NCBI GenBank assembly: GCA_947505245.1
Contig: CANNIZ010000009.1
Span: 57,363-121,362 of the forward strand
DNA: 64,000 bases
Direction: 5' to 3'
From: Pseudomonadota bacterium
GTDB lineage: Bacteria > Myxococcota_A > UBA796 > GCA-2862545
In this document: piece after piece, positions 1 through 26,875 of the stretch
Layout of the letters: every line of letters starts with the position of its first letter
Position numbering within the stretch: the stretch's first letter is position 1
The notes under the pieces: generated by a model
Told to the model about the DNA's origin: nothing
What the model saw: only the letters and a program-made list of their open reading frames with translations
Databases searched by the model: none
Made by a program: the position numbers and the translations under genes

Positions 1-158
1 ATTCCGCCCCACCCCGGGTCGGGCAACCGAGATCCTTAGGTCCCCGACATGTTCTCGGCGTTCCACCGTTCAGGAGAGCTGGCACGCCGCATGCACTTGC
101 CCAAGACACGGAAGTCGGGATGCCCGATGACCGACCGAAAGTTCACTTTCGGGCGATC

Positions 159-170
159 TTTGACGTCAAA
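159..170. promoter_or_regulatory. Perfect 12-base palindrome TTTGACGTCAAA
   Basis: TTTGACGTCAAA is an exact palindrome, and its TTGAC could serve as a -35 element. No -10 like TATAAT follows at 16-18 bases, and stems already occur upstream of it. It could be a regulator site, part of a promoter, or just another paired segment of the RNA. Weak call. Confidence 0.2.
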
Positions 171-407
171 AACCCCACGGAGGTCGGCCGCGACCCCCTC
201 GCAGTGAGACGCCTCAACGGGAAACCGCTGAGAAACGCATTCGGCGACGGCGCGATGGAACGCGAAATTCCATCACGGCGAAAGGCAACGGCACAACTTC
301 CGCTCCGGACAGACTCTCGAGCGCGTCACCAGCAACGGTGGCAAACCATGGTCGAGCATCGTGAAAAGCGAAGTTCGAATGCAAGCTCAAGAGGGATCAG
401 TCCGACC

Positions 408-458
408 GTCCCACCATCCAGTTCACGCAGGTCACCCAACCTGCGATGTAGGTGGGAC
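408..458 (+). other. Two-tier RNA hairpin inside the giant ncRNA
   Basis: An outer perfect 8-bp stem (GTCCCACC 408-415 with GGTGGGAC 451-458) encloses an inner perfect 7-bp stem (CGCAGGT 426-432 with ACCTGCG 439-445) and a six-base loop CACCCA. Fifteen Watson-Crick pairs in 51 bases is far more than expected by chance in unconstrained sequence. Confidence 0.75.
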
Positions 459-504
459 GAGGCTGTCTATCCTTCGCAAGGAGGTGACGACGGCAACCTC
501 GCAG

Positions 505-550
505 GTGCTCTGCAAAGCGCATCTGGCGGATCCTCGCGGGATCCGAGCAC
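505..550 (+). other. Two-tier RNA hairpin inside the giant ncRNA
   Basis: GTGCTC (505-510) pairs with GAGCAC (545-550), and inside it CGGATCC (527-533) pairs with GGATCCG (539-545) around loop TCGCG. The two helices share G545 and would stack end to end, leaving an asymmetric internal loop at 511-526. Confidence 0.7.
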
Positions 551-794
551 AGGCGTCGAAAGGCGTCTGCGTCCGAGGTCCCTGCTGCTTCGATGGTCAC
601 ACGTCGCTCGCCTCACGGCAGAACGTGTCGACGAACCCCTCGCCACCATGGCCGGCGGGTGGTTCCCCAACCGAAAGGTTGGCCGCGTGCAACGAAGCAG
701 CGAGGGCGGAACGGAGCGAGGCTCTTTCACCTGACGGTCTCGACCGACAGGAACGACAAGAGCAGCGGCGAACGAACAAGGATTTCGTTTTCCG

Positions 795-844
795 GAATGC
801 TGGCGCACTGAGTGCGCGACGCATTCACCTCGGGAGCAATCCCG
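795..844 (+). other. Tandem RNA hairpins, the second with a GCAA tetraloop
   Basis: GAATGC (795-800) pairs with GCATTC (821-826), enclosing GCGCAC/GTGCGC (803-808/812-817) with loop TGA. Four bases later follows CGGGA-GCAA-TCCCG (831-844), a five-pair stem capped by a GNRA tetraloop of the kind that docks into helix receptors. Confidence 0.72.
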
Positions 845-1210
845 CGGTCGAAGGACCTCGAAGGGGACCAAAGCCCAGGGAGGGTAGGCCGGAGGTATGC
901 TGGAAACGGCGTGCACCGGTACGGACCCATCTGCGGAGCAACGCCTCGAAGGTGATGCCTCACGTACTCCCGACACGCGCGTCGACGCCGGCAACGGAGG
1001 CGACGAGTCGATCGAGAACACGCGGGAAGCGAACACCACGGAGGCAACGGTCGTGGCGACACGAAACGGCTGCGGGTGGGGGGAATCCTCCAAAGGGTAT
1101 GAACCGCGCTGCGGGGAAGCGGCTTTCGCGTGACCAACTGCACATCGACCAGCAATGGCCAGTGTGGGGTGTTGGACCCACCCGAAAGACGAAAGAAACG
1201 CAGCGAACCC

Positions 1211-1265
1211 CAGGATCGGCAGCGGGATGCAACAAGCCCGCGAATCCTGCGCCAGAAATGGCGCA
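1211..1265 (+). other. Adjacent, potentially coaxially stacked RNA helices
   Basis: CAGGAT (1211-1216) pairs with ATCCTG (1244-1249) and encloses GCGGG/CCCGC (1222-1226/1237-1241). The next helix TGCGCC/GGCGCA (1248-1253/1260-1265) with loop AGAAAT begins exactly where the first one ends, an arrangement typical of coaxial stacking in large folded RNAs. Confidence 0.72.
1222..1241 (+). repeat. Internal RNA motif, copy 1: GCGGG stem with AUG-CA-ACAAG loop
   Basis: Stem GCGGG/CCCGC with the ten-base loop ATGCAACAAG. The same stem and almost the same loop recur at 1666-1687, differing only by a two-base insertion, so the loop sequence itself is probably recognised by something. It is nested inside the CAGGAT/ATCCTG helix. 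Confidence 0.65.
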
Positions 1266-1631
1266 AAGTCTCGCGCAAGCGGGGCGATCGGCGGAGGAAA
1301 CCGGCGGGACCGTGCAAAACGGTGAGGTCGGAACAGGATCGCGGAGTTGGCACTTCGCGACCGAAGCGATGGCAGCAATGTCGTCGCGGGAGTGGACGCC
1401 GGGGAACAGGTCGATGGAAGGGCGAAGTGGACCGGTTGATGAAGAACGCTACGGCAGCGATGTCGGCGGCGGAAGGCTCAACCGGGGCGAATCCCAAGAG
1501 AGAGGGTCGGAAATCACCGACCGGGGCATTGGAACAAGAACTCTGGAGAGGAGCGAAGCTCACGAGGGCCGGTACGGAACGACCGTAGCAATACGGGCGA
1601 ACCGACGGCGATGAGGCTTGAAGTCTCGAGT

Positions 1632-1656
1632 GTCCAATCGGGTGACCGACAAGGAC
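1632..1656 (+). other. Two-tier RNA hairpin with GUGA tetraloop
   Basis: Outer stem GTCC (1632-1635) with GGAC (1653-1656); inner stem TCGG (1638-1641) with CCGA (1646-1649) closed by GTGA. The inner TCGG-GNRA-CCGA element repeats the one at 19-30 (TCGG-GCAA-CCGA) near the other end of the RNA. Confidence 0.65.
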
Positions 1657-1665
1657 GAACGAGGC

Positions 1666-1687
1666 GCGGGATGGCCAACAAGCCCGC
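1666..1687 (+). repeat. Internal RNA motif, copy 2: GCGGG stem with AUG-GCCA-ACAAG loop
   Basis: Stem GCGGG (1666-1670) with CCCGC (1683-1687) and the loop ATGGCCAACAAG. Compared with the copy at 1222-1241 the flanking loop bases ATG and ACAAG are identical and only the middle differs (CA against GCCA). Unlike copy 1 it is not obviously enclosed by an outer helix. Confidence 0.65.
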
Positions 1688-1855
1688 TAGAGCAACATCG
1701 CAGGTGAACCAAAGGAACAGGCGTAAGTCGGTTCCGTTCGCCGCGACCCTGAAGAGCCCGTGAACCTCATGAGAGTCGCCGTTCGCGCGGCACGTTTCAA
1801 CGCTCGCAAGACTCTGAAGGCGACGTCGCATCATCATCACGACACCGTAAAAATG

Positions 1856-1888
1856 GCCCCGGGCGGAAACGCTCGGGGCATTTTTTTT
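1856..1888 (+). terminator. Intrinsic terminator closing the giant ncRNA
   Basis: Nine-pair stem GCCCCGGGC/GCTCGGGGC (1856-1864/1871-1879, one G-T pair) with loop GGAAAC, followed by A and eight T residues. It reads on the + strand and ends 56 bases before the thiolase start, so it separates the upstream transcript from that gene. Confidence 0.92.
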
Positions 1889-26800: not shown

Positions 26801-26875
26801 TGGAGCGGGTGGACAGATTTGAACTGACGACAGCCACGTTGGCAACGTGGAGCTCTACCACTGAGCTACACCCGC
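26801..26875 (-). tRNA. tRNA-Gly (GCC), CCA encoded
   Basis: On the minus strand a full cloverleaf can be traced: acceptor GCGGGTG with CACCCGC, D arm GCTC..GAGC, anticodon stem CCACG/CGTGG with loop TTGCCAA (anticodon GCC, glycine), T loop TTCAAAT, discriminator T, and an encoded CCA at 26803-26801. Without CCA the body is 72 bases. Glycine codons GGC/GGT are the targets, a major isoacceptor in GC-rich genomes. Confidence 0.97.

What the first reader, a model, noticed from the sequence alone, without database searches (positions are those of the whole stretch)
1..1888. A giant, terminator-capped structured RNA with no evident protein
Sequence shows dense perfect stems over about 1.7 kb on one strand, six GNRA-capped, an A:T ratio of about 2.4 (127 to 52 by hand over 1141-1620), and a strong intrinsic terminator on that strand. 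Long open frames appear on both strands and none encodes recognisable protein. Large bacterial RNAs such as OLE, ROOL and GOLLD are roughly 0.6-0.9 kb as I know them, so this one, at least 1.8 kb, would be exceptional. It resembles no class I can place.
Basis: partly seen in the sequence, partly recalled or inferred. Interest (0 to 1): 0.93.

Follow-up and report, generated by a model that had tools for sequence, protein, structure and literature searches.

The report
Giant promoter-switched structured RNA family
This stretch of an uncultured genome of the Myxococcota group holds a gene for a very large RNA, about 1.8 kilobases by its predicted ends, that shows no sign of coding for protein, belongs to a family found in dozens of related bacteria with a core fold supported by paired mutations, likely starts at a switchable (sigma-54) promoter and carries a boxA-like signal of the kind found in ribosomal RNA genes, so it would be among the largest structured RNAs known in bacteria.

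Summary
Window 106-1888 (+) folds far better than shuffles (z -8.2; other strand -2.7), carries 15 GNRA-capped stems (shuffles 1.7), ends in an intrinsic terminator and matches no Rfam or Pfam family. A covariance model of its core finds it in 34 of 63 genomes of the order and 63 of 356 of the phylum; core stems covary (21 of 26 pairs with two-sided changes; 0 of 500 shuffles). Predicted length runs from about 0.95 to 2.7 kb. New here: nearly every gene of the order with its 5' end on the contig has a sigma-54-type promoter, mostly with palindromic enhancer-like sites at fixed distances, then a boxA-like element. That promoter+boxA signature occurs 45 times in 60 genomes (reversed control 0). 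Many genomes hold several copies; close copies lie in unrelated loci and share only the cassette from enhancer to terminator. Copies outside the order that have the promoter lack palindrome and boxA. A candidate NtrC-type activator and a TPR protein lie beside a few copies. Transcription, antitermination, assembly and function are inferred. Best guess: a conditionally made, rRNA-like, trans-acting RNA or RNP scaffold.

The parts
80..95 (+). sigma-54-type promoter TGGCACG-N4-ATGCA (-24/-12); start of transcription predicted near 106
   Evidence: Read from sequence; exact TGGCAC[GA]N5TGCW within 2.3 kb upstream of the core in 42 of 70 copies, background 1 in 1.15 Mb; also in the second copy of this genome
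155..168 (+). boxA-like element GATCTTTGACGTCA (core TCTTTGA), 76 bases after the promoter's first base
   Evidence: NTCTTTGA within 200 bases of the promoter in 34 of 45 copies, control 15 of 2783 windows; rRNA leader of a same-family genome has GGTCTTTGAAATT
61..195 (+). conserved 5' block (promoter, first hairpins, boxA-like element, GTCAAAAACCCC)
   Evidence: blastn to the second copy in this genome and to relatives
196..853 (+). expansion region I, variable in length among relatives (holds a short block 253-316 shared with the second copy)
   Evidence: distance between flanking conserved blocks varies between copies
854..957 (+). conserved domain B
   Evidence: alignment of 31 copies; covarying helices in a scripted alignment without shuffle control
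958..1031 (+). expansion region II; about 1.46 kb in the three copies of genome G003
   Evidence: frames of the G003 inserts give no Pfam match
1032..1190 (+). conserved domain C, 5' part, with CGCUGCG 1107-1113 that pairs with 1199-1205
   Evidence: the pair is read from the fold, its covariation seen by eye only
1191..1370 (+). core module modelled as R1 (140 positions, 26 pairs)
   Evidence: R1 hit 96.8 bits, E 5.4e-24 (this sequence is one of the 26 in the model); covariation
1222..1241 (+). core hairpin 1222-1226/1237-1241 with loop AUGCAACAAG
   Evidence: 4 of 5 pairs with two-sided changes over 26 sequences
1301..1331 (+). core double helix 1301-1305/1327-1331 and 1309-1313/1319-1323
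   Evidence: 7 of 10 pairs with two-sided changes, 100% and 94% of cells paired
1289..1425 (+). conserved domain D, overlapping the core
1728..1848 (+). 3' domain with CGCAAGACTCTGAAGG (1805-1820)
   Evidence: blastn block in a few relatives; GACTCTGAAGG with at most one mismatch 3' of the core in 7 of 28 loci
1849..1888 (+). intrinsic terminator, hairpin then TTTTTTTT

Best explanation
Window 80-1888 is the gene of a large structured RNA with no sign of coding that is likely transcribed on demand from a sigma-54 promoter, is probably handled by the boxA (Nus factor) machinery of rRNA, and is predicted to work in trans as a folded RNA or RNA-protein scaffold. Steps: (1) an NtrC-type activator, responding to an unknown signal, binds the palindromes upstream and opens the sigma-54 promoter (promoter and palindromes seen in sequence; binding inferred; which activator is a candidate only). 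(2) Soon after initiation the boxA-like element would load NusB/NusE and the other Nus factors, helping RNA polymerase across 1-2.7 kb of untranslated sequence and/or helping the RNA fold (element seen; factor binding inferred from rRNA). (3) The RNA folds into a conserved multi-domain core with many GNRA loops plus variable expansions (core helices supported by covariation) and ends at an intrinsic terminator. (4) Several dispersed copies would give dose (copies shown; reason inferred). (5) The RNA, alone or with the neighbouring TPR protein, would form a large particle that works away from its own gene (inferred: no fixed neighbour, mixed orientation of the next gene).
For: Covariation with controls (and 47 of 69 pairs in a scripted alignment without control); family across the phylum; no match to Rfam at the curated threshold and none of note below it, none to Pfam; no coding pattern. 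Promoter: exact in 42 of 70 copies, background 0.002 per 2.3 kb. Enhancer-like palindrome (spacer 3-9, two mismatches allowed) within 220 bases of the promoter in 30 of 43 copies with enough sequence, control 25 of 1707 windows; at -55 to -63 in 27 of 45 promoters. The exact palindrome occurs 21 times in 18 genomes (reversed pattern 2); 19 of the 21 lie upstream of RNA genes, one of these cut by the contig end before its core (my sorting). boxA-like element: 34 of 45 copies against 15 of 2783, and in the rRNA leader of G003. Promoter+boxA signature: 45 sites in 60 genomes, reversed pattern 0; in this genome exactly the two RNA genes. Next gene (own GC3 gene call) co-directional in 38, opposed in 25 of the 63 loci that have one, of 68 examined. 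In G020 an activator gene, the RNA and a TPR gene are adjacent; a TPR gene follows the RNA in G015, G008, G013 and the activator in G011, G003. Activator orthologue in 31 of 38 RNA-bearing and 9 of 22 other genomes (Fisher p 0.002, kinship not corrected).
Against: No transcript, protein binding or particle was shown. In this genome the palindromes are degenerate (one with 2 mismatches, 0 exact). 28 of 70 copies lack the exact promoter within 2.3 kb, some because the contig ends; L058 of this order has none. All nine copies outside the order that have the promoter lack both palindrome and boxA, so these two are not family-wide; 11 of 25 copies without the promoter have a boxA-like match in the 1.2 kb upstream (no control for that length). 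PMC4807359 (passages) argues that in E. coli the boxA complex serves rRNA maturation more than Rho resistance. Activator link: one activator motif among 371 neighbour proteins; 7 RNA-bearing genomes lack the orthologue and 9 have it without a detected RNA. A TPR relative lies beside 4 of 68 RNA loci and 2 of 30 activator loci. The trans role rests on absence of fixed neighbours.
Confidence: 0.58

Rival explanations
1. A selfish or mobile RNA cassette: the unit from enhancer to terminator moves to new sites (by an unknown enzyme acting in trans, or by recombination) and has no cell function beyond spreading.
For: Copies in one genome share only the cassette: 94.5% over 1.54 kb with unrelated flanks in G048, 84-90% over about 1.2 kb for three copies in G053; contigs of six genomes end 117-159 bases after the promoter, as at a repeat; patchy presence.
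Against: No terminal inverted repeats or target duplications seen by eye at the ends of five copies in two genomes (no dedicated search). No Pfam domain in frames of the large inserts. No match in phages or plasmids by blastn or, for the core pattern, in viral contigs. A conserved regulated promoter is not needed for spreading alone; a TPR neighbour recurs across genera.
Confidence: 0.17
2. A long cis-regulatory leader or attenuator of the downstream gene.
For: Here it lies upstream of a co-directional thiolase gene with a terminator between.
Against: The next gene is opposed in 25 of 63 loci; promoter, RNA and terminator move as a unit in the copies compared.
Confidence: 0.04
3. A protein gene or decayed gene whose GC-rich sequence happens to fold.
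For: Frames of 417 aa (+) and 303 aa (-) are open.
Against: No Pfam match, frame-breaking indels and phase-free substitutions, covariation, strand asymmetry of fold and GNRA loops.
Confidence: 0.02
4. The RNA's main work is to bind and hold one partner (the TPR protein, or Nus or ribosomal proteins) as a sponge, like 6S-type or RsmY-type RNAs but much larger.
For: A TPR gene follows the RNA in four genomes; boxA binds NusB/NusE (PMC4807359 passages); repeated module in four copies (R1 second hits in L053, L059, L060, L061).
Against: 64 of 68 loci show no TPR relative of this group among the neighbours compared; a sponge would hardly need a conserved multi-domain fold (argument, not a test).
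Confidence: 0.15

Closest known systems
GOLLD RNA
   Same: Very large, ornate, structured, unknown function; 'many members exceeding 800 nucleotides' (PMC12286853, passages).
   Different: No Rfam match of the present RNA to GOLLD. [quoted passage not shown] this one lies among chromosomal genes, is often multi-copy, has a sigma-54-type promoter and is predicted to reach about 2.7 kb.
ROOL RNA
   Same: Large RNA with no known protein partner, proposed RNA-only complex (PMC12286853 passages).
   Different: No Rfam match; encoded in phages and prophages (same passages); shorter (about 0.6 kb, recalled).
OLE RNA
   Same: Large structured bacterial RNA, dimer in cryo-EM (PMC12286853 passages).
   Different: No Rfam match; about 0.6 kb and in other phyla (recalled); I know of no boxA or sigma-54 link.
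Ribosomal RNA operons
   Same: Often multi-copy, long untranslated structured RNA with boxA in the leader and expansion segments (partly recalled).
   Different: No rRNA similarity (Rfam); sigma-54-type promoter, so likely inducible.
sigma-54-driven small non-coding RNAs (for example RtcR-controlled Y RNA-like RNAs)
   Same: Non-coding RNA under a sigma-54 activator (recalled; of PMC7790460, on RtcR and the RNA repair operon, only the start of the abstract was seen).
   Different: Those RNAs are about 100 bases (recalled).

Membership tests
GOLLD / ROOL / OLE | match to the family's covariance model | tested here: not met
   cmscan of the window at gathering threshold and of 16 sources at E <= 1, 5 and 0.1 gave no hit to these families
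GOLLD / ROOL / OLE | large structured RNA without a reading frame | tested here: met
GOLLD / ROOL | location in phages or prophages | tested here: not met
   no blastn match in 50,697 phage records, none for the core pattern in viral contigs; flanks here are a TrkA-type channel and a thiolase. Prophages around other copies were not searched for
GOLLD / ROOL / OLE | homo-oligomer or cage in solution | not testable with these tools
   needs mass photometry or cryo-EM
sigma-54-dependent gene | -24/-12 promoter TGGCAC-N5-TTGC | tested here: met
   consensus recalled; here ATGCA at -12
sigma-54-dependent gene | upstream activator sites | tested here: inconclusive
   palindromes in 30 of 43 copies against 25 of 1707 controls, but degenerate in this genome and absent outside the order
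sigma-54-dependent gene | loss of expression without rpoN or the activator | not testable with these tools
   no transcript data
boxA antitermination unit (rrn type) | boxA soon after the start of transcription | tested here: met
   here and in 34 of 45 copies; same core in an rRNA leader of G003
boxA antitermination unit (rrn type) | NusB/NusE binding and Rho resistance | not testable with these tools
   inferred from rRNA (PMC4807359 passages)
Group I / group II intron | match to intron covariance models, intron-encoded protein | tested here: not met
   no Rfam match; no Pfam match in 8 frames of the large inserts
cis-regulatory leader | fixed co-directional downstream gene | tested here: not met
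   25 of 63 next genes are opposed
Transposon / insertion sequence | terminal inverted repeats, target duplication, transposase | tested here: inconclusive
   none seen by eye at the ends of five copies in two genomes; no dedicated search

The most novel reading that the evidence does not exclude
A previously undescribed, inducible counterpart of ribosomal RNA: a multi-copy, sigma-54-switched, boxA-equipped RNA of up to 2.7 kb that assembles into an RNA-only or RNA-TPR particle, larger than the GOLLD cage, during a stress or developmental state of Myxococcota, and that grows by expansion segments on a conserved core.
Probability: 0.2. Interest if true: 0.96.

Novelty: new variant of a known kind. 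Interest (0 to 1): 0.87.

Why it matters
Few bacterial RNAs besides rRNA are both this long and this structured. This one occurs in 18 families of the phylum as sampled, has covarying helices, and in its order comes with a sigma-54-type promoter, enhancer-like sites and a boxA-like element, which together suggest a long untranslated RNA that cells make on command. It offers handles for tests (promoter, enhancer, boxA, a candidate activator, a candidate protein partner), and its predicted 0.95-2.7 kb range lets one study how a large RNA gains expansion segments outside the ribosome.

Tried and rejected
Rfam at relaxed thresholds gave only weak matches below the families' cutoffs, most of them at the terminator, such as ctRNA_p42d in L141 at 33.8 bits against 50. 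The roughly 1.46 kb inserts of G003 were read for an intron-type or nuclease protein; eight frames of these and of the L067 insert give no Pfam match. Phage, plasmid and viral collections gave nothing. A fixed neighbour gene was sought by all-against-all blastp of 371 predicted neighbour proteins; groups of at most five loci appeared (a MopE-type protein, a dehydrogenase E1 gene partly within one genus, the TPR group), none common to all. Two sites of the promoter+boxA pattern look unlike the family: G031:C145 was left out of the RNA-positive set, G007:C662 did not matter because G007 is positive by the core model. Of the 21 exact palindromes, that in G034:C310 lies inside a coding frame and one of two in G049 lies 3' of the core; both are counted as not upstream of an RNA. 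Genes around the activator (9 proteins from five genomes) gave no common theme by Pfam; six had no match. Papers: search listings with abstract starts only; passages of PMC12286853 and PMC4807359. Six of those searches bear on the RNA (33, 34, 74, 75, 97, 98); none of the listings showed it, but the library lacks most subscription papers and its listings were read by title and abstract start only, so absence from print is not proven. Rows dropped: duplicates of one locus under two ids were not both used in the copy counts; G052 counts as positive by a weak core hit (E 5.9e-4) that the signature supports.
Full report
Check of the observation. The predicted transcript, window 106-1888 on the + strand, folds at -810 kcal/mol against -720 +/- 11 for 24 dinucleotide shuffles (z -8.2); the reverse strand has z -2.7 and the next gene's coding strand +1.9. 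It has 15 GNRA-capped stems of four or more pairs (shuffles 1.7; reverse strand 1), and the A and T counts over 1141-1620 are exactly 127 and 52. The terminator is strong. No long frame matches Pfam.

A real family. blastn finds conserved, collinear blocks in 16 of 58 relatives and 26 of 377 genomes of the phylum; the weak single blocks in the most distant genomes were not verified by blastn, though some of those genomes are hit by the model below. A second copy of this genome is cut by a contig end. A covariance model of the core (R1; 26 sequences, 26 pairs) hits 34 of 63 genomes of the order and 63 of 356 of the phylum, in 18 families, at E <= 0.001, best E 3e-32; the model's own sequences are among the hits. 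A core pattern finds 12 contigs in a collection of 84,980 species, eleven titled Deltaproteobacteria, Proteobacteria, Oligoflexia or Myxococcota and one titled Klebsiella pneumoniae, most likely a mislabel. The contig titled Myxococcota has the length of G046:C44, a genome of this order; that is the basis for the phylum name.

Covariation. On the alignment used for the model 89.5% of cells pair (shuffled 72%), 21 of 26 pairs show two-sided changes (shuffled 13.7) and the covariation score is 0.48 (shuffled 0.18; slid versions 0.07-0.12); no shuffle of 500 reaches any of the five values. The structure was derived from these sequences and related rows can exceed shuffles, so the slid and shuffled controls are not probabilities. 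An alignment of 27 compact copies from promoter to core, folded by RNAalifold in a script, has 47 of 69 pairs (with 15 or more filled cells) with two-sided changes, including helices in and after domain B; a few predicted pairs fall in the promoter, and no control was run.

Not coding. Between close copies (five pairs, not independent) 43 of 47 indels are not multiples of three and substitutions are about even over codon phases.

Anatomy and size. Conserved blocks are separated by two variable regions. Adding promoter and terminator positions gives about 0.95-1.0 kb in compact copies (L115, L120, L129), 1.78 kb here and 2.66-2.71 kb in the three copies of G003 (my arithmetic, start taken 26 bases after the promoter's first base). 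Terminator-like hairpins were found by my scan in only part of the copies. Weak second hits of R1 about 240-290 bases upstream in L053, L059, L060 and L061 suggest an internal duplication.

Copy number. By R1, 12 of the 34 positive genomes of the order have at least two core copies (G001 has a second 5' end only). In G048 two genes are 94.5% identical over 1.54 kb, in G053 three are 84-90% over about 1.2 kb; similarity starts about 90-150 bases upstream of the promoter and stops just after the terminator, with unrelated flanks.

Control region. The exact motif TGGCAC[GA]N5TGCW lies upstream of 42 of 70 copies; elsewhere 1 in 1.15 Mb. In the order nearly every copy with its 5' end on the contig has it; L058 lacks it and L150 has a changed form. 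Of 45 promoters (one mismatch allowed), 27 have a TGGGAA/TTCCCA palindrome (spacer 3-9, two mismatches allowed) at -55 to -63, many a second near -135 or -182; overall 30 of 43 with enough sequence, control 25 of 1707. The exact palindrome occurs 21 times in 18 genomes (reversed pattern 2), 19 of them upstream of RNA genes. The nine promoter-bearing copies outside the order (families f24, f29, f36, f41) have neither palindrome nor boxA; some others seem by eye to use sigma-70-type promoters.

boxA. NTCTTTGA lies 71-122 bases after the promoter's first base in 34 of 45 copies; control 15 of 2783 windows. Several copies without the promoter carry GTTCTTTGA(A/C)ACTCTG. The rRNA leader of G003 has GGTCTTTGAAATT about 182 bases before the 16S match; that of G217 has GCTCCTTGAAAAC (one mismatch); only 2 of 18 genomes searched gave a 16S gene and this genome gave none. 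PMC4807359 (passages) says that boxA-bound Nus factors prevent Rho termination in reporters but may serve rRNA maturation more than antitermination in E. coli. The joint signature TGGCACGN5TGCW-N54-84-TCTTTGA occurs 45 times in 60 genomes of the order, its reversed control never; two sites look accidental. In the window's genome it finds exactly the two RNA genes among 21 promoter-like motifs, the same motif read backwards occurring 31 times. Six genomes gained an RNA gene this way; the loci read for five of them, and for G052, end 117-159 bases after the promoter, as expected if a repeated gene breaks assembly; in G037 both sites lie 42 bases from a contig start. Their cores were not seen.

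Partners. Beside the G020:C94 copy lies a response-regulator/AAA+/Fis-type sigma-54 activator, the only one among 371 neighbour proteins by motif, and downstream a TPR protein. Homologous TPR proteins (35-67% identity) follow the RNA in G015, G008 and G013, and follow the activator's orthologue in G011 and G003, 2 of 30 activator loci read with 1.5 kb flanks. The orthologue (clear score gap above paralogues; two partial ones, G034 and G047, counted by me) is in 26 of 32 RNA-bearing and 14 of 28 other genomes by the core model, 31 of 38 and 9 of 22 with the signature added (p 0.014 and 0.002, kinship not corrected). This genome's orthologue is on the same contig, about 44 kb away. The link is suggestive, not proof. 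Relatives of the TPR protein are named, where named, as tetratricopeptide or hypothetical proteins, several from Myxococcota.

Reading. A long, untranslated, often multi-copy RNA with a boxA-like element resembles rRNA in gene design but has an inducible-type promoter. I commit to a trans-acting scaffold or particle, about 58%. Seen in sequence: promoter, boxA-like element, terminator, copies, covarying core helices. Inferred: activation, Nus factor action, assembly and purpose.

Novelty. No Rfam 15 family matches, and of the papers listed the comparable RNAs are OLE, ROOL and GOLLD. I call it a new variant of a known kind: a new class among large ornate RNAs, with control features that I know in none of those three (recalled).

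Noticed in passing
L080 (CAMASI010000038.1): A genome record titled Klebsiella pneumoniae carries this RNA; its contig has the length of G005:C38 of the window's order, so the title is most likely wrong.
   Followed up: partly
L263, L264, L267, L268, L269, L273: Contigs of six metagenome assemblies end 117-159 bases after the RNA promoter, so copy numbers and presence counts are likely too low.
   Followed up: yes
L053 2812-2957, L059 9054-9169, L060 564-725, L061 2303-2489: Second, weaker match of the core model inside the same RNA: a likely internal duplication of a module.
   Followed up: partly
L066 4364-6193, L249 7397-8935: A TPR protein group found beside the RNA in four genomes and beside the sigma-54 activator in two; candidate partner.
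   Followed up: partly
L183 1501-1518 (G049:C7:3983-4000): An exact enhancer palindrome lies 3' of the RNA core in G049, either inside the RNA or upstream of the next gene.
   Followed up: no
L061 3340-6006: A dehydrogenase E1 gene lies downstream, opposed, of the RNA in L061, L064, L104 and L152, and further off in L147: a partly conserved locus.
   Followed up: partly
window 26804-26875: A tRNA gene on the minus strand is the only Rfam match of the window at the curated threshold.
   Followed up: no
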